A DNA stretch of 64,000 nucleotides, taken from Myxococcus sp. RHSTA-1-4. GTDB lineage: Bacteria; Myxococcota; Myxococcia; Myxococcales; Myxococcaceae. Location of the stretch: positions 124,001-188,000 of the forward strand of contig NZ_JAIQDG010000022.1 in the NCBI RefSeq assembly GCF_020037125.1, read 5' to 3'. The notes under the pieces were generated by a model, which saw nothing but the letters and a program-made list of their open reading frames with translations, searched no databases and was not told the DNA's origin. Positions 27,340 through 38,451 of this stretch are shown one piece after another (within the stretch, counting starts at the first letter, position 1; each line of letters begins with the position of its first letter). The position numbers and the translations under genes were made by a program.

Positions 27340-27858
27340 GTGATGCCAGAAGGCGCGAAGATAGCCCTCTACTCCGGGGCCGTGGCCGCGGTCCTGGCCC
27401 TGGCTTTTGGCCTGAGCAGTGCCTGCACCGGCGGACCCGAGCGTGGCATCCAGGGAGACAGTCCGAACACGACGGGCGCGGTGAAGCCGTTGTCCCCCGA
27501 CGAGTGCGTACGGCTCCAGCAGGTGATGACCACACGGGAGGCGACACGGTCGAGTCATGCAGCCCTCGCCTTCGCCCTCGTCTGCGCATCCGCCGGGCTG
27601 GGGATTCTCCTGTACTCCGCGGCGTCCGCTTCCACGCGCGTCACGTGGGTCACTGATGAGCAGCCCGCGCTCGGTCCCGGGACCGTGGGACTGATTCTCG
27701 TTGTCATCGCCGCACTGGTCGTCCTCCTCGCCCCTCGAAACGCGGCCCGCCTGCTGAACCCGCCCAAGGAGCCAGCCAGGACCGAGGACAAGACATGGGC
27801 AGAGAGAGCTCCGCCTCCGAAGGACGCGGGCGCCGACGCGGGAACCCAGGCTCCGTGA
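27340..27858 (+). CDS. Small three-helix membrane protein at head of RADAR block
   Basis: 172 aa (GTG 27340; the next codon is ATG 27343, and GGGGAG at 27330-27335 fits either). Hydrophobic segments at about residues 8-28, 73-95 and 115-132 are separated by polar loops; the first ends in LSSACTGG, which could be read as a lipobox. A Pro/Asp/Ala-rich soluble tail follows (about 138-172). No known family recognised. It is the first gene of the co-directional block leading to rdrA and rdrB, with 34 bp to the next gene. A GATAAT at 27310-27315 is a candidate -10 element. It could be a membrane partner of the defence system or unrelated. Confidence 0.6.
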   Translation: MMPEGAKIALYSGAVAAVLALAFGLSSACTGGPERGIQGDSPNTTGAVKPLSPDECVRLQQVMTTREATRSSHAALAFALVCASAGLGILLYSAASASTRVTWVTDEQPALGPGTVGLILVVIAALVVLLAPRNAARLLNPPKEPARTEDKTWAERAPPPKDAGADAGTQAP

Positions 27859-27892: not shown

Positions 27893-28648
27893 ATGGAGCA
27901 GACCATCCAGAGCATCTTCCAGACCTTCGAGGGGCTGATCCGCAGACAGTTCGCGCCCTCCATGACGTTCTTCGCCATCGTGGTCCTGGGGGAGTTCATC
28001 CGGGCCGCGCTGACCGGGGAACCTGCGGGGGCCTGGTTCAAGGACTTCCGCGGCTATCTGGAGGGGGAGGGCAAGCCGTCGGTCTTCATCACCCTCTTCA
28101 TCCTGCTGGCCATCGGGCTCAGCTACGCACTCGGCGCCATCCAGCAGCTCCTCTTCGACGACATGCTGAAGCGGAACTTCGACCCCACCACCCGCTTCAG
28201 CCGCTCCGTGGTGAGCGAGGCTCGGGCCCTCACGGAGCTCCGTGCCAAGGTGAAGCAGCGGCTCGTCGAGGAAGAGGCGGTCGGGGACCTGAGGAACCTT
28301 CAGGAGGCCTCGGACTACGTGCTCTACGAAATCCTCGGAGGCATCGATCCAACGGACACGTACCGCTTCGTCGACGCGGCGAAGGCGACAGGGATTGTCT
28401 GCGTCTCGGTCATCCTGGTGTTATTGGGCCATGTCCTGGTCTACTTCGAGGAGCTCGGCACGTGGGTCGCGCCCCTGTTGTTGCTGGCCGTCTTGTTCTA
28501 CTGGTGGGGGAGGGAGGCGGCCCTTTCCCAATATCGGGCCCGGGCCCTGCGGCTCTATGTGAACTTCCTGGCCATGCCGACAGCGCGGATCACGCGCCGG
28601 CTCCTCCGGCCGGATGAGGATCCAACGCTCACCTCCCAGGACAAGTAG
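27893..28648 (+). CDS. Four-helix membrane protein, candidate RADAR accessory
   Basis: 251 aa. Hydrophobic helices at about residues 21-40, 63-87, 165-185 and 190-206 flank a charged cytosolic section (about 90-160) rich in Glu, Arg and Lys with predicted helices (RALTELRAKVKQRLVEEEA). The C-terminus is basic then acidic (RRLLRPDEDPTLTSQDK). I cannot assign a family from sequence. Many RADAR loci carry a small membrane gene (SLATT-type or Csx27-like) beside rdrA and rdrB; position, size and topology here fit such a role, but SLATT proteins usually have two helices, so it is not an obvious member. It has AGAGGAG upstream and only 9 bp to the next gene, implying one operon. Confidence 0.65.
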   Translation: MEQTIQSIFQTFEGLIRRQFAPSMTFFAIVVLGEFIRAALTGEPAGAWFKDFRGYLEGEGKPSVFITLFILLAIGLSYALGAIQQLLFDDMLKRNFDPTTRFSRSVVSEARALTELRAKVKQRLVEEEAVGDLRNLQEASDYVLYEILGGIDPTDTYRFVDAAKATGIVCVSVILVLLGHVLVYFEELGTWVAPLLLLAVLFYWWGREAALSQYRARALRLYVNFLAMPTARITRRLLRPDEDPTLTSQDK

Positions 28649-28657
28649 TAGGAAACC

Positions 28658-29116
28658 ATGACGCCTCCCATCCATCCGCGCGGCACATATGTCGCGCTCT
28701 ACGGCAGTCACGGCGCGGAGTGGCGCCGCCGCGCCAAGGTGCTGCTCGACGCGGCGAACGTCCCCTGGCACGACCCCAGCGATGCGCGCTGGGAGGGCAT
28801 CACCCACGAGAACGGAGACGCGCACCAGGCGCTCATCGACCAACTGGTGACAGAGGAGCAGGACGCCTTGCTCAGGGCGGGATGCGCCGTCGTCCACTTC
28901 GCGGGCAGCAGGCCCTCGCTGGCGGCTCGTTTCGAGCTGGGCGTGCTCGCCGGCCGGGGCGTGAAGGCCTTCGTCCACGTCGAACCCGACGTGCAGGGCC
29001 GCAACTACATCTGGGCGGCGGTGAAGTACCACCATCCACACCTGGAGCGCTGCGACTCGCTGGAGGAGGCGGTGCGCCGGGCCATCGAGCACATGGGAGG
29101 CGCTTCTCGCCGGTGA
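28658..29116 (+). CDS. Nucleoside 2-deoxyribosyltransferase-like protein in RADAR block
   Basis: 152 aa. The pattern fits the nucleoside 2-deoxyribosyltransferase / SLOG-like Rossmannoid fold: first strand TYVALYGSHG, a helix beginning EWRRRAKVLL, NVPWHDPSD, then LLRAGCAVVHFAGS and SLAARFELGVLAGRGVKAFVHVEP. In deoxyribosyltransferases the ELG glutamate is the nucleophile; here that would be Glu93. Such enzymes exchange or hydrolyse the base of deoxynucleosides, and relatives serve as nucleotide sensors in defence operons. It is coupled to the membrane gene (9 bp gap, AGGAAA ribosome-binding site) and followed 153 bp later by rdrA. Assignment is by motif reading only; a TIR-like fold is the main alternative. 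I do not know this as a described RADAR component. Confidence 0.6.
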   Translation: MTPPIHPRGTYVALYGSHGAEWRRRAKVLLDAANVPWHDPSDARWEGITHENGDAHQALIDQLVTEEQDALLRAGCAVVHFAGSRPSLAARFELGVLAGRGVKAFVHVEPDVQGRNYIWAAVKYHHPHLERCDSLEEAVRRAIEHMGGASRR

Positions 29117-29269: not shown

Positions 29270-32059
29270 ATGGCCAACGACGCGGGAAGTGCCTCGACTC
29301 CACGCTCCAGCTCCGACCGCAGTCCCAGGCCGGAGGCACTGCCGCTCAAGTGGAACGAGCTCCTGCCGACGACCCAGAAGGCCACCAGGGACCTCATCCA
29401 ATGGCTGTGTTCGGCCGTCCGCTCACTCCCCACGAGAGACGCCGGGGCGTCGAGAGAGCCAGACGCCTCGGATACCTCCCGGGCCACCCGGGAGCAGCTC
29501 GCGACCAGCGTGCTCGTCGCTGGCGACAGGGGCTTTGGGAAGACGACGGTCCTGCTGTCCGCCGCCTACGCCTTCCGGCAGCCCGATGACTTCCTCCCGG
29601 AAATCGAAACGTCCACCCAGGCGCGTGAGTTGCGCAGCCAGCTCAAGGAGTTCACGCGGCACATGGTCTGGTTGGAGCCCCTGGACATGGAGCCCCTGCC
29701 GGCGGAGGCCAACCTGCTGGCCACCCTGCTGGTGCGTGTGCGCGACGCGCTGGAGCTCGACCTCTCCGGGAACAAGAGCCAGAAGCTCATCCCCGCCGTC
29801 CTTCCCGAAGAGGGGGCCGACGACCCGTGGGGGAAGGTCGACACGCTTGTCCGGGATGCCACGTTCATGTGGGACGACAAGCCGGTGCAGGGGCAGGACG
29901 CCCGCCAGCGCGCCGAGTACCAGCTCAAGGCAGCCGAAATCTACGCCGACTTCCGGAGCCGTCTCTTCGGGGCCATTGACGCTGTGTCCAGACACCTCGC
30001 GCGGCGCAGGTACGGAAGTGAATCGAGCGAGGGAGTCATCCTCGTCCTGCCCATCGACAACGTGGACCGGAGCATCCAGCACCTCCACCTCATCCTGAAG
30101 CTGACGCGGATGGTGGCCAGCCGGAGGCTCTGGTTCGTCCTCGCCTCCGGGCGCCAGGAGTTCCAACTCTTCCTCGAGCGGACCTTCCAGGCGGAACTGG
30201 CCGAGTCCGGCAAGGCCGCCCCCAGCCCGAAGGAGCAGGACGAGACACGGTCCATTGCCCGGCGGCAGGCCGCCGCCGCGATGCGCAGGGTGCTGCCCCT
30301 GGTGCACCGCATCGAAATCGAGCCCCTGTCTCCACAGGCGGTCTGGGATTTCTACGCTCCTGCCTCCATCGCAGGTACGGCCTCGGGAAGAAAGCCACTC
30401 TGGGAGTATCTGGAGGCGCTCCGCCTGAAGGCCCCCCACCAGGAAGAGTCCGGGGCCCGCGACCAGGATCCGTACCGCTTCGCCGACCTCTTCGACGTCC
30501 GTGAGCGGCTTCTCGTCGAGGCGGACAATGGGCTGCTGCTGAAGCACCTCCTCGATGCCATGGAGAGGGAAAAGGAGGAGAAAGAGGAGGAGTTGGGTGG
30601 CCCCAGAGAGAAGCGGAAACACCTCCTGAGCGTCGATGAGCAGGGTGCACTCTACGTCGATTCGGACGGCGGCCAGCAGCCCCTGGAGGAGTTCCGCAAG
30701 CAGCAGGAGGCGCACGCGCGGAAGGAGCCGGATAGACTCCCCGTCTTCACGTACGCGGCGAAGCTCGCCCTGTCCATGTCCGCGCGAACCGCGCTGGATC
30801 TCTGGCAGGAGGCTCGCCATGCGTGCCAGCTTCAAGATGCATGTGATCAGCGCGACACGGCGGCAGGCAGAGCCCAGCGCGGTTTCGAGACGCTGGCCAT
30901 TGATATCGCCCATCGGATGCTGCTGATGGCCATTGATGAGAGTGACCTGCCGAGCTGGGGCAGCGAGCAACTCCTCCATCGAGTCATTCGTCGCGATCCG
31001 GCGGGACGCGTCACGCTGGACCTGACCGGCGAGCCCATACAACGCATCAAACTGTCTGCGCTGTCCGATGCACTGGAGTGGCGCGGCAAGCTGGGAGTGA
31101 ACAGCAAGCGGGAGAAGCACGGCGACGTGATGCTCCGCAGCGAGCTGCACCTGCGCTACTTCAAGGACATCATCCTCGAACTGCACGACCTGGAGCATCC
31201 CAACCGCAGCGTCCCCATTCCCCCGCAGGTGTCTGGCTGGTTCATGCTGTTGCACGACCTGCTGGTGATTTCCAATCAGTCGCGGGTGCTCAACCGCAAG
31301 CTGGCGCCACTCGACGTGACGCCCGAGCTCGTCGTGACGAGGCACGAGGCGCTGTTGCATGCCGACTCGATCGTCGAGCTCAACTTCCAGTGGTTGCTTC
31401 CCCAATGGGATACCTACTTCGACTCCTTCATCTTCACCATGCAGTGGAAGGCGTTCACCCAGCGCATCGACTGTCTCCTCCAGAACTCGAAGAGCTGGTC
31501 CGACAGTGTGGAGCGCTGTCTCTTCCGGCTCATCCTGGCCGCATGGGTGGACAACGTCCGCGCGGTGGCGGGCAGCGGCCGCGGTGAATGGAACTGGAGC
31601 AGGCTCCACGAACTTTGCGACCAGGCTGGGAAATCGCCTCCTCTCGATGAAAAGAAGCTGCTGGAGACAACGGACGGCTACGAGAAAGCGGTTGTCCAAG
31701 GTGTCCAAACGCTCCACGCAGAGACCCAGTCGAAGCGAGTTCGCTACGGCAGGCCCCGGATTGCGCGCGACTGGCTCGAGCTGTTCCTGCCCCTGATGGT
31801 GGAACCCGAGCTCATGCCCGGTGACAGCGGCAACTCCTTCCGTAACGCCCTGGGGCTGGAGCAGGCCCTCAGCGCCTCCCAGGCCGTCCACCCCTTGTCG
31901 GCCGCCTGGAAGCACAACGCGACGCTGCTTACCCAGCGCCGGTACGCCATGGTCCGCGCGGCAGCGCAGGCGGCCTACAGCCCTGACACGGCCGGGGAGC
32001 TCTCCAAGCCGGCATGGGCCGACGGCGCCTGGAAGACCTGGCGCGACACCTGGGAGTGA
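29270..32059 (+). CDS. rdrA: RADAR ATPase RdrA
   Basis: 929 aa. P-loop GDRGFGKT at about residues 85-92, Walker B VILVLPIDNVD at about 256-266, followed by a sensor-like WFVLASGRQEF. The remaining two thirds is a large, mostly helical region without recognised domains, as in RdrA, a AAA+-like ATPase that forms multimeric rings. ATG 29270 is chosen because GGAGGAGGGG (29256-29265) lies just before it; in-frame starts at 29159, 29204 and 29222 lack this. A 153-bp gap before it contains an AT-rich patch (caattatt, 29163-29170), perhaps an internal promoter. The RdrB gene follows after 6 bp, and that pairing makes the identification secure. Confidence 0.93.
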   Translation: MANDAGSASTPRSSSDRSPRPEALPLKWNELLPTTQKATRDLIQWLCSAVRSLPTRDAGASREPDASDTSRATREQLATSVLVAGDRGFGKTTVLLSAAYAFRQPDDFLPEIETSTQARELRSQLKEFTRHMVWLEPLDMEPLPAEANLLATLLVRVRDALELDLSGNKSQKLIPAVLPEEGADDPWGKVDTLVRDATFMWDDKPVQGQDARQRAEYQLKAAEIYADFRSRLFGAIDAVSRHLARRRYGSESSEGVILVLPIDNVDRSIQHLHLILKLTRMVASRRLWFVLASGRQEFQLFLERTFQAELAESGKAAPSPKEQDETRSIARRQAAAAMRRVLPLVHRIEIEPLSPQAVWDFYAPASIAGTASGRKPLWEYLEALRLKAPHQEESGARDQDPYRFADLFDVRERLLVEADNGLLLKHLLDAMEREKEEKEEELGGPREKRKHLLSVDEQGALYVDSDGGQQPLEEFRKQQEAHARKEPDRLPVFTYAAKLALSMSARTALDLWQEARHACQLQDACDQRDTAAGRAQRGFETLAIDIAHRMLLMAIDESDLPSWGSEQLLHRVIRRDPAGRVTLDLTGEPIQRIKLSALSDALEWRGKLGVNSKREKHGDVMLRSELHLRYFKDIILELHDLEHPNRSVPIPPQVSGWFMLLHDLLVISNQSRVLNRKLAPLDVTPELVVTRHEALLHADSIVELNFQWLLPQWDTYFDSFIFTMQWKAFTQRIDCLLQNSKSWSDSVERCLFRLILAAWVDNVRAVAGSGRGEWNWSRLHELCDQAGKSPPLDEKKLLETTDGYEKAVVQGVQTLHAETQSKRVRYGRPRIARDWLELFLPLMVEPELMPGDSGNSFRNALGLEQALSASQAVHPLSAAWKHNATLLTQRRYAMVRAAAQAAYSPDTAGELSKPAWADGAWKTWRDTWE

Positions 32060-32065
32060 GCGGCC

Positions 32066-34873
32066 ATGGGTGACGTCGTCACGCCTCCGGGCATCCCCCT
32101 GGCGCCCCGGCGCGTCCCCGAGGCCTATCTCCGGGCGGAGATCGCCAGCTTTCCCTTGGGCCGCGTCGAGGCCTTCCGCAGTTCCATGGTGGAGCTGGAC
32201 CCCACGCTCGAGGGGAAGACCCGCGACCTGTGGAGCGCCTGCGAGAAGGAACTCGCGCAGCATGCCGGCGGCTGGTCCCTGGACCGGCTCATCATGACGC
32301 GGGACTTCTTCTGGTTCGGCTGCGGGCCGAACGCCCCTCGCAACGTGGCCACCGGCCCCGTCTCCATGACCCGCTACCTGCGCGACCTGTCGCGCGACTT
32401 CCTCGACGCCTACCCGGGCATCACCGTGCTCAGCCAGCGGCACGACGCCAATGCCTTCGACGCGTACATCCACTACCGCTGGCTCACCTTCGCCCTGCCG
32501 GAGGACCTGCTGCTCGCGGCCGCGCCCACGGAGGTGCCTCCCACGCAGGTGAACGTGGAGTACCCCCTGCTGCTGCAACACCTGGTGGACCGCGGGGCGC
32601 CGGAGGTGCACCACCACGTGGGCGCGGGCATGGACTTCCCGCTGCTGTGGGCCTCGCTCCTGGCGAAGCTGACGGACTCGACGCTCTCCCCCCGCGCGGC
32701 GAACAGCCCGGACCTTCCCTTCGACCTGGGGGAGCGGCTGTTGCGCTGGCTGGTGGCCGCCGCCGTGGCCCGCTGTGTGCTCGCCGAGTTCCTCCTCCAA
32801 TGCTCCGGTACCGGCGCCGGGTTGAAGGACTTCCTCGAGCGCCTCTACCGCTCACCCTCCTGGCCCCAGGCCCGTGCCCGGCTGTTGAACGAGACGCTCC
32901 AGGCCCTCTCGCGGGGACAGGTCTCGGAGCTGCCCGAGTACTACGCGCTGCAGGACCTCTACGGGAGCCTCCACCCGGCGGCGTCCTGGCTCGCCTCGAA
33001 GCGGCCCGAGACGGTGGACGAGGTGTGGCGCAGGTGCGACCCCATCGCCGTGCGCCTGGGCCTGAGCAACCCCAATGGCGGCGAGCGCTGGCTGATACGC
33101 CACGGACTGGAGTGGCTGGAGCGCGAGCGGGCGCGCGCCCGGAATGACCCGAGCTACCACTACTTCAACCAGCTCTTCTGGCAGGTGCAGCGGGTGCGGT
33201 GCATCTACTACCGCACCGTGGTGCAGCGTCCGCTGACGTCCGGCCTGCAGTGGTTCGTCCGCTTCTATGACCGGCTCTGGTGGGCCCGCGAGCCCCTGCG
33301 CGCCGCGCGCGCCGAGGTGTCCTACCAGGTGGCGGGACGGGGCAGGCCGCTCTCCTCGCTGGAGGTTCGCATCACGCCCCACGCCAACTCCTTCTCGCTG
33401 GCCGAGGACCTCCATGAGCTCACCCGCTCGTGGACGCGGGTGCTGGAGAAGAGCCACGGCCCGCGGTATGGCGCGCGGGCTCCCGAGTTCGGGGTCATCC
33501 TCCACTTCGTCAAGGAGAGAGACCCGGAGCAGCGCTGGGCCACCGGAGCTCCGCCGGCGGCCGAGCTGGGCACGCATGCCGAGCCCCGCGCCCAGCGGGG
33601 ACTGCGGCTGGGAGGCCGGTTCGCGAGCTTCTTCTCGGACCAGTCCGTCAGGGCCCGGTCCATCGCGGCGCTGCTGGGTGCCGTGCCGCAGGCGCTCTGG
33701 CTGGTGCGGGGGCTGGACGTGGCGGCGGACGAGCTGAGCGTGCCCACGTGGGTGCTGGTGCCCCTCTACCGCTACATCCACCGGCAGGCGACCCTGGCCT
33801 CCATGTCACCCGCGGCGGACGGAGCCCCGCCGCTGCGGCTGACGGCGCACGTAGGTGAGGACTACCGCCACCTCATGGAGGGACTGCGGCGCGTCTTCGA
33901 GTGCATCCAGTACCTGCTGGAGCGCTTCGGGGGGCGGCTGGGGCACGCCACGGCGCTGGGCGTGGAGCCGCGCCTGTGGGCGGAGTCGGCGGGCTCGGTG
34001 ATGACGCCCGCCGAGGAGCGGATGTGGGACCTCGTCTTCGAGTGGCGGCTGTACAGCGGCTACCGCATCGCGCCCCACTTCCTGGCGGAGGCGCCCCCCG
34101 GGCGCCCGGAGCACGTGGAGAACCTCATCCGCGAGCTCTCGAGCAACATCTTCGGCAGGTGCTACGAACCACAGGTGATGGCCGAGGCCCACCACATCCT
34201 GCACCGGCTCCTGAGCCGGCCCGAGTCGAGGATTGGCAGCCAGGAGGGAGGGCTGGAGTCCCTCACCCGCGCGCTGCACACCCTGGATCCGCGCCACGTG
34301 CGCTACCCGATGGAGGTCCGTGAAATCATCCGGGCCTACCGGGAGGATGAACAGACCTTCAAGCGTGGGCAGGAGTTGGTGGACATCACCCTGGATGCCT
34401 CGGAGATAGCCGCGCTCTACGCCGCGCAGAACGCGCTGCGCCGGGGAGTGGGCCTGCGCAACATCGTCGTCGAGGTGAACCCGTCCAGCAACCTGTTGAC
34501 GGGAGACATGCTGGACCTGCGCAACCATCCCATCCTGCGGCTCTTCCCACCGGAGCGTCAGGAGAAGGAACCTCCGCCGGTGCCCATCGCGGTGGGCTCG
34601 GACGACCCGATGACGTTCAGCACCTGGCTGCTGCACGAATACTCGCTGCTGTTCGAGGCGGCCCTCACCGCGGGCTATCCGGAGCGGGTGGTGCACTCGT
34701 GGCTGGAGAACATCCAGAAGATGGGCATGGATGCCCGCTTTACCGTGGCCTGGCTGCCGACGGCCCGGAAGCGGGCGGACGCCCTGCTGCGCGAGCTCGA
34801 ACGCTACCTCCTGCTCCCGGACTCCAGGCGCCCCCGGCGGTCACCGGGGAGGCCCCTTCATCCGAGTAACTGA
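32066..34873 (+). CDS. rdrB: RADAR adenosine deaminase RdrB
   Basis: 935 aa. All adenosine-deaminase zinc-site motifs are present but far apart: VHHHVGAGMDF (His182-184), the catalytic HVGEDY (His at about 595, with Glu), NPSSN (about 805-809) and the metal-binding SDDPM (Asp846-847). Normal adenosine deaminases are about 350 aa; the large insertion between the first and second motifs and the total length are typical of RdrB, which builds a dodecameric shell that docks RdrA. The complex is reported to deaminate adenosine in RNA and/or ATP to ITP during phage infection. Start ATG 32066 lies 6 bp after rdrA, so the two are translationally linked. No catalytic residue looks lost. Confidence 0.95.
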   Translation: MGDVVTPPGIPLAPRRVPEAYLRAEIASFPLGRVEAFRSSMVELDPTLEGKTRDLWSACEKELAQHAGGWSLDRLIMTRDFFWFGCGPNAPRNVATGPVSMTRYLRDLSRDFLDAYPGITVLSQRHDANAFDAYIHYRWLTFALPEDLLLAAAPTEVPPTQVNVEYPLLLQHLVDRGAPEVHHHVGAGMDFPLLWASLLAKLTDSTLSPRAANSPDLPFDLGERLLRWLVAAAVARCVLAEFLLQCSGTGAGLKDFLERLYRSPSWPQARARLLNETLQALSRGQVSELPEYYALQDLYGSLHPAASWLASKRPETVDEVWRRCDPIAVRLGLSNPNGGERWLIRHGLEWLERERARARNDPSYHYFNQLFWQVQRVRCIYYRTVVQRPLTSGLQWFVRFYDRLWWAREPLRAARAEVSYQVAGRGRPLSSLEVRITPHANSFSLAEDLHELTRSWTRVLEKSHGPRYGARAPEFGVILHFVKERDPEQRWATGAPPAAELGTHAEPRAQRGLRLGGRFASFFSDQSVRARSIAALLGAVPQALWLVRGLDVAADELSVPTWVLVPLYRYIHRQATLASMSPAADGAPPLRLTAHVGEDYRHLMEGLRRVFECIQYLLERFGGRLGHATALGVEPRLWAESAGSVMTPAEERMWDLVFEWRLYSGYRIAPHFLAEAPPGRPEHVENLIRELSSNIFGRCYEPQVMAEAHHILHRLLSRPESRIGSQEGGLESLTRALHTLDPRHVRYPMEVREIIRAYREDEQTFKRGQELVDITLDASEIAALYAAQNALRRGVGLRNIVVEVNPSSNLLTGDMLDLRNHPILRLFPPERQEKEPPPVPIAVGSDDPMTFSTWLLHEYSLLFEAALTAGYPERVVHSWLENIQKMGMDARFTVAWLPTARKRADALLRELERYLLLPDSRRPRRSPGRPLHPSN

Positions 34874-36558: not shown

Positions 36559-36978
36559 GTGCAGCCGGGGACCTACCAGTTCGAACCTCACACCGCCGAG
36601 GTCCAGTTCCGCGTCGAGGGCACCAGCCTGCCGGAGCTCTTCGAGGAGTCGGGGTATGCGCTGGCCGAGCTCATGCTCGGTGAGTCGCCGCCGGAGCCGC
36701 CGCGCGACGCGGAGGAAGAGCAGGTCACGCTCGAGTCGGCGGACACCGAGGCGCTGCTCGTCGACTGGCTCAACGAGCTCATCTCCCGCGCGGACACGAA
36801 GAAGCGGGTCTACACGCACATCGTGGTGGACGACGTCTCCGAGCGGAAGCTTCGCGCGCGCATCCGCGGCTTCACGCCCGAGGTGCTGAAGACCGCGGTG
36901 AAGGCCGCCACCTTCCATGGGCTGGAGATTCGCGAGCACGAAGAAGGCTTCAACGCCACCGTCGTGCTCGACGTGTGA
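36559..36978 (+). CDS. Archease, RtcB cofactor
   Basis: 139 aa from the GTG at 36559, preferred because GGGGAGG (36547-36553) is 5 bp upstream; an in-frame start at 36532 would add nine residues that do not match the family. The sequence begins YQFEPHTAEVQFRVEG, the archease N-terminal pattern, and contains ALLVDWLNELISRAD and the C-terminal GLEIREHEEGFNATVVLDV. Archease speeds guanylation and turnover of RtcB RNA ligase. The rtcB gene follows after 9 bp, confirming the pair. Confidence 0.92.
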   Translation: MQPGTYQFEPHTAEVQFRVEGTSLPELFEESGYALAELMLGESPPEPPRDAEEEQVTLESADTEALLVDWLNELISRADTKKRVYTHIVVDDVSERKLRARIRGFTPEVLKTAVKAATFHGLEIREHEEGFNATVVLDV

Positions 36979-36987
36979 GAGGCGAGC

Positions 36988-38451
36988 ATGGAACCCACCG
37001 TCGAAGTCCCACAGCAGCCCACGCCGCTTCTTCGCCAGATTGGCCCGGCGCTCCATGAGCTGGACATGAGCTTCCGCGCGGACATGCGCGTGCCGGCCCG
37101 CATCGTCGCCGACGAGGAGCTGCTTCAACGGATGACCCAGGACCGCAGCATCGTCCAGCTGGTCAACGTGACGACGCTGCCGGGCATCCAGGGCTTCGCC
37201 ATCGGCATGCCGGACATGCACGAGGGCTATGGCTTCCCCGTGGGCGGCGTGGCGGGCACGTTGCTGCCCGACGGCGTCATCTCTCCCGGGGGAATCGGCT
37301 TCGACATCAACTGCGGCGTGCGGCTGCTCTCCACCGGGCTGCGCCACGAGGACCTGAAGGAGGTCCTGCCGGCCCTGGCCCATGACCTGGCCCGGAGTAT
37401 TCCCACGGGCTTCGGCCGCCACGGGCGGCTGTCGCTGAGCGCGGCGGAGCTGGACCGGGTCCTCGACGAAGGCGTTCCGTACGTGGTGGAGGTGCTGGGG
37501 CTGGGGAGCCGGGAGGACCTCGCGCACATCGAGGCGGGGGGGCACCTGCCCGGCGCGGATGCGGGGCGGGTCACCGTGCGGGCCCGGGAGCGGGGGCATG
37601 ACCAGCTCGGCACCCTGGGCGGCGGCAATCACTTCATCGAGGTGCAGCGCGTGGAGCACATCCACGACGCGGAGGCCGCCACGGCCTTCGGACTGTTCGA
37701 GGGGCAGCTCACCGTCCTCATCCACACGGGCTCGCGCGGGCTGGGACATCAGGTCTGCACGGATGCCGTGCGGAAGATGGACCAGGTCCTGGCGCGGGAG
37801 GGCATCCGGCTGGTGGACCGGCAGCTCGCCTGCGCGCCATTCTCCTCGCCCGAGGGCCAGGACTACTTCGCGGCCATGTGCGCCGCGGCCAACTTCGCGT
37901 GGTCCAACCGGCAGGTGCTCACGCACCGCGTGCGCGAGGTGTTCGGCCGAAGGCTCGGTGAGCGCGCCGAGGCGTGGCCGCGAGTCGTCTATGACGTGGC
38001 CCACAACATCGCCAAGGTGGAGACGTACGGCGGGCAGCAGCTGTGCGTGCACCGCAAGGGCGCGACGCGGGCGTTCGGCCCGGGGGACCCGGAGCTGCCC
38101 TCGGCCTACGCGGAGGCCGGCCAGCCGGTATTCATCCCCGGCAGCATGGGCACGGCGTCCTTCGTGCTGGCGGGGCAGGGCGAGTCCCGGTCCATCTCGC
38201 TCGGCAGTGCCTGCCACGGGGCGGGGCGGCAGCTCAGCCGGGCCGCCGCGAAGCGGCAGGTGGTGGGCGCGGAGCTGCGCAAGGCGCTGAACGCGCGGGG
38301 CATCATCGTGGAGTGCCCGTCGAACGCGGAGCTCGCGGAGGAAGCCCCCACGGCCTACAAGGACGTGGACCGGGTGGTGGACGCGGTGGAGACGGCGGGC
38401 ATCGCCCGGAAGGTGGCGCGGTTGGTGCCGCTGGCGGTGCTCAAGGGCTGA
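36988..38451 (+). CDS. rtcB: RtcB RNA-splicing ligase
   Basis: 487 aa. Mn-binding and catalytic blocks are intact: GMPDMHEGYGFPVGGVAG, FDINCGVRLL (metal Cys), GTLGGGNHFIEVQ, HTGSRGLGHQ, and HRKGATRAFGPG with the histidine that is guanylated. RtcB joins 2',3'-cyclic-phosphate or 3'-phosphate RNA ends to 5'-OH ends, repairing RNAs cut by ribonucleases and toxins. It is encoded directly after archease and about 2.1 kb downstream of the RADAR genes on the same strand, an interesting but possibly coincidental arrangement since archease-rtcB pairs are common. Its 3' end overlaps the convergent CapA gene by 11 bp. Confidence 0.97.
   Translation: MEPTVEVPQQPTPLLRQIGPALHELDMSFRADMRVPARIVADEELLQRMTQDRSIVQLVNVTTLPGIQGFAIGMPDMHEGYGFPVGGVAGTLLPDGVISPGGIGFDINCGVRLLSTGLRHEDLKEVLPALAHDLARSIPTGFGRHGRLSLSAAELDRVLDEGVPYVVEVLGLGSREDLAHIEAGGHLPGADAGRVTVRARERGHDQLGTLGGGNHFIEVQRVEHIHDAEAATAFGLFEGQLTVLIHTGSRGLGHQVCTDAVRKMDQVLAREGIRLVDRQLACAPFSSPEGQDYFAAMCAAANFAWSNRQVLTHRVREVFGRRLGERAEAWPRVVYDVAHNIAKVETYGGQQLCVHRKGATRAFGPGDPELPSAYAEAGQPVFIPGSMGTASFVLAGQGESRSISLGSACHGAGRQLSRAAAKRQVVGAELRKALNARGIIVECPSNAELAEEAPTAYKDVDRVVDAVETAGIARKVARLVPLAVLKG

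What the first reader, a model, noticed from the sequence alone, without database searches (positions are those of the whole stretch)
29270..34873. Intact RADAR anti-phage system (rdrA-rdrB)
Directly seen: a 929-aa ATPase with P-loop GDRGFGKT and Walker B, followed after 6 bp by a 935-aa protein with every adenosine-deaminase metal and catalytic motif (HHH, HVGEDY, NPSSN, SDDP) spread over about 660 residues. From established knowledge: this pair and the oversized deaminase are diagnostic of RADAR (phage restriction by an adenosine deaminase acting on RNA). No catalytic residue appears lost, so the system is predicted active.
Basis: partly seen in the sequence, partly recalled or inferred. Interest (0 to 1): 0.85.

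Follow-up and report, generated by a model that had tools for sequence, protein, structure and literature searches.

The report
RADAR variant with altered ATPase motif
This is a real two-gene RADAR-type phage-defence pair in a myxobacterium, but it belongs to a divergent branch in which the sensor protein's ATP-hydrolysis motif carries a fixed Asp-to-Asn change, so the claim that nothing catalytic is lost is wrong and the role of ATP hydrolysis in RADAR becomes testable.

Summary
A 929-aa P-loop protein (29270-32059) is followed after 6 bp by a 935-aa protein (32066-34873) with every adenosine-deaminase motif. Both are RADAR proteins. RdrB matches RdrB profiles and PDB chains by sequence, and its model matches solved RdrB best. 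RdrA is nearly invisible to sequence search, but solved RdrA chains are the only significant structural matches to its model.

Two parts of the interpretation fail. First, the deaminase should not be called an RNA editor: published work on E. coli RADAR shows (d)ATP-to-(d)ITP conversion, not RNA editing. Second, a catalytic-motif residue is altered. RdrA Walker B reads PIDNVDRS, with Asn where E. coli RdrA has Asp222. This Asn is fixed in 29/29 non-redundant relatives of this branch (Myxococcota, beta/gammaproteobacteria, one Fibrobacter MAG) and absent from 57/57 other RdrAs. It fits one change on a tree built without those columns. The sensor-1 Asp is also gone in most of the branch.

Both genes remain under purifying selection, so this is a maintained variant, not decay. 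Most likely it is an ATP/dATP-deaminating RADAR whose RdrA uses ATP differently: binding with little hydrolysis, or hydrolysis through an NLR-like displaced acid. The adjacent upstream genes are a separate cassette.

The parts
29270..32059 (+). rdrA-like gene, 929 aa AAA+ protein; Walker A GDRGFGKT (85-92), Walker B PIDNVDRS (D263, N264, D266), sensor-1 position G294, putative sensor-2 R506
30056..30067 (+). codons of Walker B residues D263-N264-V265-D266 (residue n begins at 29270+3(n-1)); N264 is the clade-defining substitution
32066..34873 (+). rdrB-like gene, 935 aa adenosine-deaminase-fold protein; H182, H184, H595, E598, H627, D846, D847 intact

Best explanation
The locus is a two-gene RADAR operon of a divergent branch. 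By homology, RdrB forms a multimeric shell whose zinc deaminase sites convert ATP and dATP to ITP and dITP during phage infection. RdrA forms an AAA+ ring that docks on RdrB, senses infection through its C-terminal lobe and switches RdrB on. In this branch RdrA keeps the P-loop, the Mg-binding Walker B Asp and the putative sensor-2 Arg, but carries a fixed Asn at the usual catalytic-base position. Its ATP cycle is therefore probably altered: it binds ATP and either hydrolyses it slowly or uses the downstream invariant Asp266 as the base. Shown here: gene pair, fold identity, intact RdrB residues, the fixed D-to-N change, and purifying selection. Inferred: ATP deamination, assembly, phage sensing, and the effect on hydrolysis.
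For: RdrB: PADLOC RdrB E 3e-32, NCBIfam RdrB E 5e-39, PDB RdrB 8fnv/8fnw E 3e-28; AlphaFold model pLDDT 90, pTM 0.91 matches E. coli RdrB first (Foldseek E 5e-25, TM 0.62/0.74), with ordinary adenosine deaminases far behind. RdrA: model pTM 0.81; all 15 significant Foldseek matches are RdrA; VIA Z 20.9 to 8hr8 and 19.0 to E. coli 8fnt, next family (BrxC) 13.4. Tandem order is kept across the branch. N264 in 29/29 branch members against D in 57/57 others; one change, support 100, on an RdrA tree built without those columns; the RdrB tree gives the same branch, support 100. dN/dS among Corallococcus 0.28-0.61 (RdrA) and 0.14-0.30 (RdrB). ATP-to-ITP chemistry and the need for both enzymes: PMC9994260.
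Against: Neither protein reaches NCBIfam's naming cut-offs. RdrB is 18% identical to E. coli RdrB over its whole length, so substrate choice, shell assembly and docking could differ. No phage, metabolite or expression data exist. Flanking genes do not look like a defence island, and in Corallococcus the pair is nearly genus-wide (14 of 16 genomes), which is unusual for a defence system.
Confidence: 0.8

Rival explanations
1. RdrA of this branch binds ATP but does not hydrolyse it; ATP binding alone assembles the ring and licenses RdrB, so this RADAR works without an ATPase cycle.
For: N264 fixed at the Walker B base position in 29/29 members; sensor-1 Asp also lost in 22/29. Changing this Walker B residue in other AAA+ proteins leaves binding and assembly but blocks hydrolysis: McrB E280Q (PMC6344862). 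In ClpB the Walker B Glu is held to activate the attacking water, and a sensor-1 mutant is about 30-fold slower (PMC3940203).
Against: The E. coli RdrA Walker A mutant K82A abolishes ITP build-up, but that mutation may also stop binding. D266, two residues after N264, is invariant and could serve as base. Sensor-1 Asp also varies among other RdrAs (16 of 57 lack it).
Confidence: 0.4
2. Hydrolysis is kept through a displaced base: D-N-x-D works like the degenerate hhhhDGxDE motif of NLR/NACHT proteins, with Asp266 about one helical turn after the first Asp doing the chemistry.
For: D266 invariant in 86/86 RdrAs. Human NLRP3 has Gly right after the Walker B Asp, needs D305 at the same +3 spacing, and loses activity when a standard DE is restored (PMC9633759). 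Clade-specific fixed R267-S268 next to it suggests a rebuilt local site.
Against: NLRP3 has Asp-Glu at +3/+4; here +4 is Arg. All 57 other RdrAs keep both acids, which argues that the second one normally matters.
Confidence: 0.4
3. RdrA is a decaying pseudo-enzyme and the system is inactive.
For: Loss of two ATPase motif residues.
Against: Same substitution kept in 29 diverse relatives, full-length open frames, dN/dS below 1; Walker A, D263, D266 and R506 intact.
Confidence: 0.05
4. The pair is not defensive: an adapted housekeeping nucleotide deaminase with its own regulator, e.g. controlling the purine pool in myxobacterial development.
For: Found in 14 of 16 Corallococcus genomes, often with the same gene downstream; no defence genes recognised beside the window copy.
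Against: Patchy in the window's own genus and in unrelated phyla; different upstream neighbours; three different RADAR-type copies in this one genome.
Confidence: 0.1
5. RdrB of this branch edits RNA rather than free nucleotides.
For: The original RADAR claim as recorded in PMC9994260; RdrA structures described as RNA-loading exist in the PDB (8hra, 8hrb titles).
Against: E. coli RdrB does not edit hairpin RNA in vitro and gives no strong A-to-G signal in vivo (PMC9994260); the fold is that of mononucleoside/nucleotide deaminases.
Confidence: 0.05

Closest known systems
RADAR system (RdrA-RdrB; E. coli, Citrobacter rodentium, Streptococcus suis)
   Same: Tandem gene pair; RdrA and RdrB folds; histidine tetrad and catalytic Glu of RdrB; Walker A, Mg-binding Asp and putative sensor-2 Arg of RdrA
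   Different: About 18% identity to E. coli RdrB over the whole length; RdrA hardly detectable by sequence; Walker B second acid is Asn; sensor-1 Asp missing; below curated profile cut-offs
Other RADAR-type copies of myxobacteria (e.g. window genome C42 and C71; loci L055, L061)
   Same: rdrA-rdrB pair, RdrB 30-37% identical, same deaminase motifs
   Different: Normal DD Walker B; RdrA about 780-1260 aa; separate branch of the RdrB tree
Cad1 (CARF-fused adenosine deaminase of type III CRISPR)
   Same: Deaminase fold and ATP-to-ITP chemistry (PMC11645235 title and abstract)
   Different: Activated by cyclic oligoadenylate through a CARF domain; no RdrA partner
NLR/NACHT and McrB/ClpB AAA+ ATPases
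   Same: Useful models for a changed Walker B
   Different: Unrelated partners and functions

Membership tests
RADAR | rdrA and rdrB encoded in tandem | tested here: met
   6-bp spacing; pair kept in the relatives whose contigs reach that far
RADAR | RdrB homologous to known RdrB | tested here: met
   E 5e-39 NCBIfam, 3e-32 PADLOC, 3e-28 PDB 8fnw; below NCBIfam's 800-bit naming cut-off, as are all RdrB-bearing genomes of the order
RADAR | RdrB histidine tetrad and catalytic Glu (E. coli H152, H154, H498, H530, E501) | tested here: met
   H182, H184, H595, H627, E598
RADAR | RdrB fold with the deaminase core and large insertions | tested here: met
   Foldseek top hits are RdrB, TM 0.62/0.74
RADAR | RdrA fold | tested here: met
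   only RdrA entries significant in Foldseek; VIA Z 20.9, rmsd 9.8 over 502 residues; best compact match 8fnw_M Z 18.6, rmsd 4.0 over 371
RADAR | RdrA Walker A GxxGxGK[TS] | tested here: met
   GDRGFGKT
RADAR | RdrA Walker B acid pair (E. coli D221-D222) | tested here: not met
   D263-N264; N in 29/29 of the branch, D in 57/57 others
RADAR | RdrA sensor-1 Asp (E. coli D253) | tested here: not met
   Gly294; position also varies in other RdrAs
RADAR | RdrB trimer-interface glutamates (E. coli E595-E597) | tested here: inconclusive
   region aligns to 'LIRELSS', alignment too loose to judge
RADAR | dodecameric RdrB, heptameric RdrA, giant co-complex | not testable with these tools
   needs EM
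RADAR | ATP/dATP to ITP/dITP conversion and phage restriction | not testable with these tools
   needs biochemistry and plating

The most novel reading that the evidence does not exclude
A branch of RADAR spread over several phyla has dispensed with ATP hydrolysis by RdrA: the ring is an ATP-binding switch rather than a motor, and ATP occupancy alone controls RdrB, which itself consumes ATP.
Probability: 0.35. Interest if true: 0.7.

Novelty: new variant of a known kind. Interest (0 to 1): 0.5.

Why it matters
What RdrA does with ATP is an open question in RADAR: it is an ATPase and enhances RdrB activity, but whether hydrolysis powers sensing, docking or substrate feeding is unknown. A natural branch that has fixed a change at the presumed catalytic base answers part of this by nature's own mutagenesis and makes the question testable with one residue. 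It also shows that curated RADAR profiles pass over the divergent RADAR pairs of myxobacteria, where 30 of 145 genomes of this order carry a homologue, against fewer than 1% of genomes in the published survey, which used other methods (PMC9994260).

Tried and rejected
Upstream genes as RADAR accessories (27340-27858, 27893-28648, 28658-29116): rejected. They are absent beside all other copies, and the last two occur elsewhere only as a pair in Archangium lansinium, far from its RADAR loci. A conserved third gene beside the non-myxobacterial members: none in three or more loci. Sensor-1 loss as a defining trait: rejected, because 7 of 29 branch members keep the Asp and 16 of 57 others lack it. 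An early tree count gave two changes of the Walker B label because a pattern misread L140; the alignment shows DD there and the count is one. Phage origin: no relative in 50,697 phage records or in the viral contigs. PDB sequence search for RdrA: nothing significant. A broad alignment of all RdrBs was too diverse to scan with. Literature search for RADAR in myxobacteria: none in the held library, which lacks most subscription papers.

Full report
OBSERVATION. The window lies at G000:C49:124001-188000 of an 11.2-Mb genome. By matching contig lengths, its genus group includes Pyxidicoccus caerfyrddinensis and P. fallax, so the host is a Myxococcus/Pyxidicoccus-type myxobacterium (inference).

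IDENTITY OF RdrB. Profiles: PADLOC RdrB E 3e-32, NCBIfam RdrB E 5e-39 but 134 bits against an 800-bit naming cut-off. Sequence match to PDB chains of E. coli RdrB, E 3e-28, residues 520-864. In 46 homologues H182, H184, H595, E598, H627, N805, P806, S808, N809 and D846 are invariant. The AlphaFold model (pLDDT 90, pTM 0.91) hits RdrB chains first (E 5e-25, TM 0.62/0.74) and ordinary adenosine deaminases next (E 8e-6). In the model the motif residues lie at or just after the ends of successive strands (179-184, 591-596, 624-627, 841-843), as in adenosine deaminases.

IDENTITY OF RdrA. Sequence evidence is weak: PADLOC E 1.6e-4, NCBIfam E 2e-7 with 30 of 600 bits, and nothing in the PDB. Structure settles it: the model (pLDDT 79, pTM 0.81) has 15 significant Foldseek matches, all RdrA, and VIA Z scores of 20.9 (8hr8), 19.0 (E. 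coli 8fnt) and 17.8 (S. suis 8fnu), against 13.4 for the next family. Published RADAR systems share only 22-28% identity in their conserved parts (PMC9994260), so divergence alone does not exclude membership.

A DISTINCT BRANCH. In the host's order 30 of 145 genomes carry an RdrB homologue: 22 have the window type (56-66% identity to P0002, besides the window itself) and others a 30-37% type. The window genome has three copies: the window's own, and two of the second type. No genome in the order exceeds NCBIfam's RdrB cut-off. A genome-wide scan extends the window branch at 45-50% identity to Methylococcales, Burkholderiales (including Oxalobacteraceae), Sulfuriferula and one Fibrobacter MAG. 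The RdrB tree of 100 proteins puts 33 rows in this branch with SH-aLRT 100, sister to two Deltaproteobacteria/Myxococcota MAG copies.

THE WALKER B CHANGE. E. coli RdrA has Walker B D221-D222 and sensor-1 D253 (PMC9994260). The window RdrA reads LVLPI-D263-N264-V-D266-R-S. In an alignment of 86 non-redundant RdrAs, position 264 is Asn in 29/29 branch members and Asp in 57/57 others; K91, D263 and D266 are invariant in all, R506 in all but one gap; the pair R267-S268 is fixed in the branch, and Arg at 267 occurs nowhere else. On a tree of the RdrA ATPase region built without these columns the Asn group is one side of a single branch with support 100. The sensor-1 Asp is Gly or Val in 22 of 29 branch members, but it also varies in 16 of 57 others, so it is a weaker signal.

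NOT DECAY. Frames are full length in many species. Pairwise dN/dS among Corallococcus pairs is 0.28-0.61 for RdrA and 0.14-0.30 for RdrB; for the more distant window/L034 pair both are 0.57, with high divergence. 14 of 16 Corallococcus genomes carry the window type (the genus name is inferred from matching contig lengths).

WHAT IT MEANS. In AAA+ proteins the residue after the Walker B Asp is held to activate the attacking water (PMC3940203), and changing it can leave nucleotide binding and assembly intact while blocking hydrolysis (McrB E280A/E280Q, PMC6344862). But NLRP3 shows that a motif hhhhDGxDE, with the acid displaced by three residues, still hydrolyses ATP and needs that displaced Asp (PMC9633759). 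RdrA's invariant D266 is at the same spacing. I cannot choose between a binding-only ring and a displaced base; both are open and separable with single mutants. The E. coli K82A mutant abolishes ITP accumulation, so ATP handling by RdrA matters in E. coli, but that mutant does not separate binding from hydrolysis.

MECHANISM COMMITTED TO. RdrB deaminates ATP/dATP to ITP/dITP on infection; RdrA docks, senses and activates. The chemistry is inferred from E. coli RADAR, in which RdrB acts on triphosphates and not on AMP, adenosine or hairpin RNA (PMC9994260). 'Acting on RNA' should be dropped as the default reading.

SURROUNDINGS. Ten flanking genes have no convincing PADLOC match. They include two P-type ATPases, an acetyl-CoA hydrolase, a rhodanese/metallo-beta-lactamase fusion, archease and RtcB. 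No third gene is conserved with the pair in all groups. The pair is not in phage records or viral contigs. The genes at 27893-29116 form a separate two-gene cassette: their only relatives in 145 genomes of the order lie in Archangium lansinium, at 13.64 Mb, next to TIR-caspase and TIR-nSTAND1 genes and far from its RADAR loci.

VERDICT. A genuine RADAR-family pair of a divergent branch, filed as a variant because the Walker B acid pair was tested and not met. The residue change is firm; its consequence is not yet known.

Noticed in passing
window 27893-28648 and 28658-29116 (+): Two-gene cassette: membrane protein plus a nucleoside 2-deoxyribosyltransferase-like protein (PF15891, E 1e-6). Its only relatives in 145 genomes sit in Archangium lansinium (L165) directly after a TIR-caspase gene and a TIR-nSTAND1 gene, which suggests a rare signalling or defence module.
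   Followed up: partly
L055 (G000:C42) and L061 (G000:C71): The same genome carries two further rdrA-rdrB pairs of a different branch with a normal DD Walker B; three RADAR-type systems in one genome is unusual for a system reported in under 1% of genomes.
   Followed up: partly
L058, L061, L062, L063: Other-branch RADAR copies in the window's genus group share conserved upstream and downstream neighbours (clusters c12-c17), i.e. a stable locus with possible extra components.
   Followed up: no
L077 (Rhizobium leguminosarum pRLN3): Unannotated RADAR pair followed downstream by an adenylosuccinate synthetase gene, an enzyme of the same purine pool.
   Followed up: no
L079 (Aureibacter tunicatorum pAT1): RADAR-type pair followed by a SLATT-domain membrane protein; its RdrA lacks the sensor-1 GD motif but keeps DD.
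   Followed up: no
window 36559-38451 (+): Archease and RtcB RNA-ligase genes lie shortly downstream of the RADAR pair; not conserved next to other copies.
   Followed up: partly
L092/L053 (Corallococcus sp. AS-1-6): Second window-type RdrB copy at a contig end in a genome that already has one; its fourth-histidine motif reads RLGHAIALG instead of RLGHATALG.
   Followed up: no
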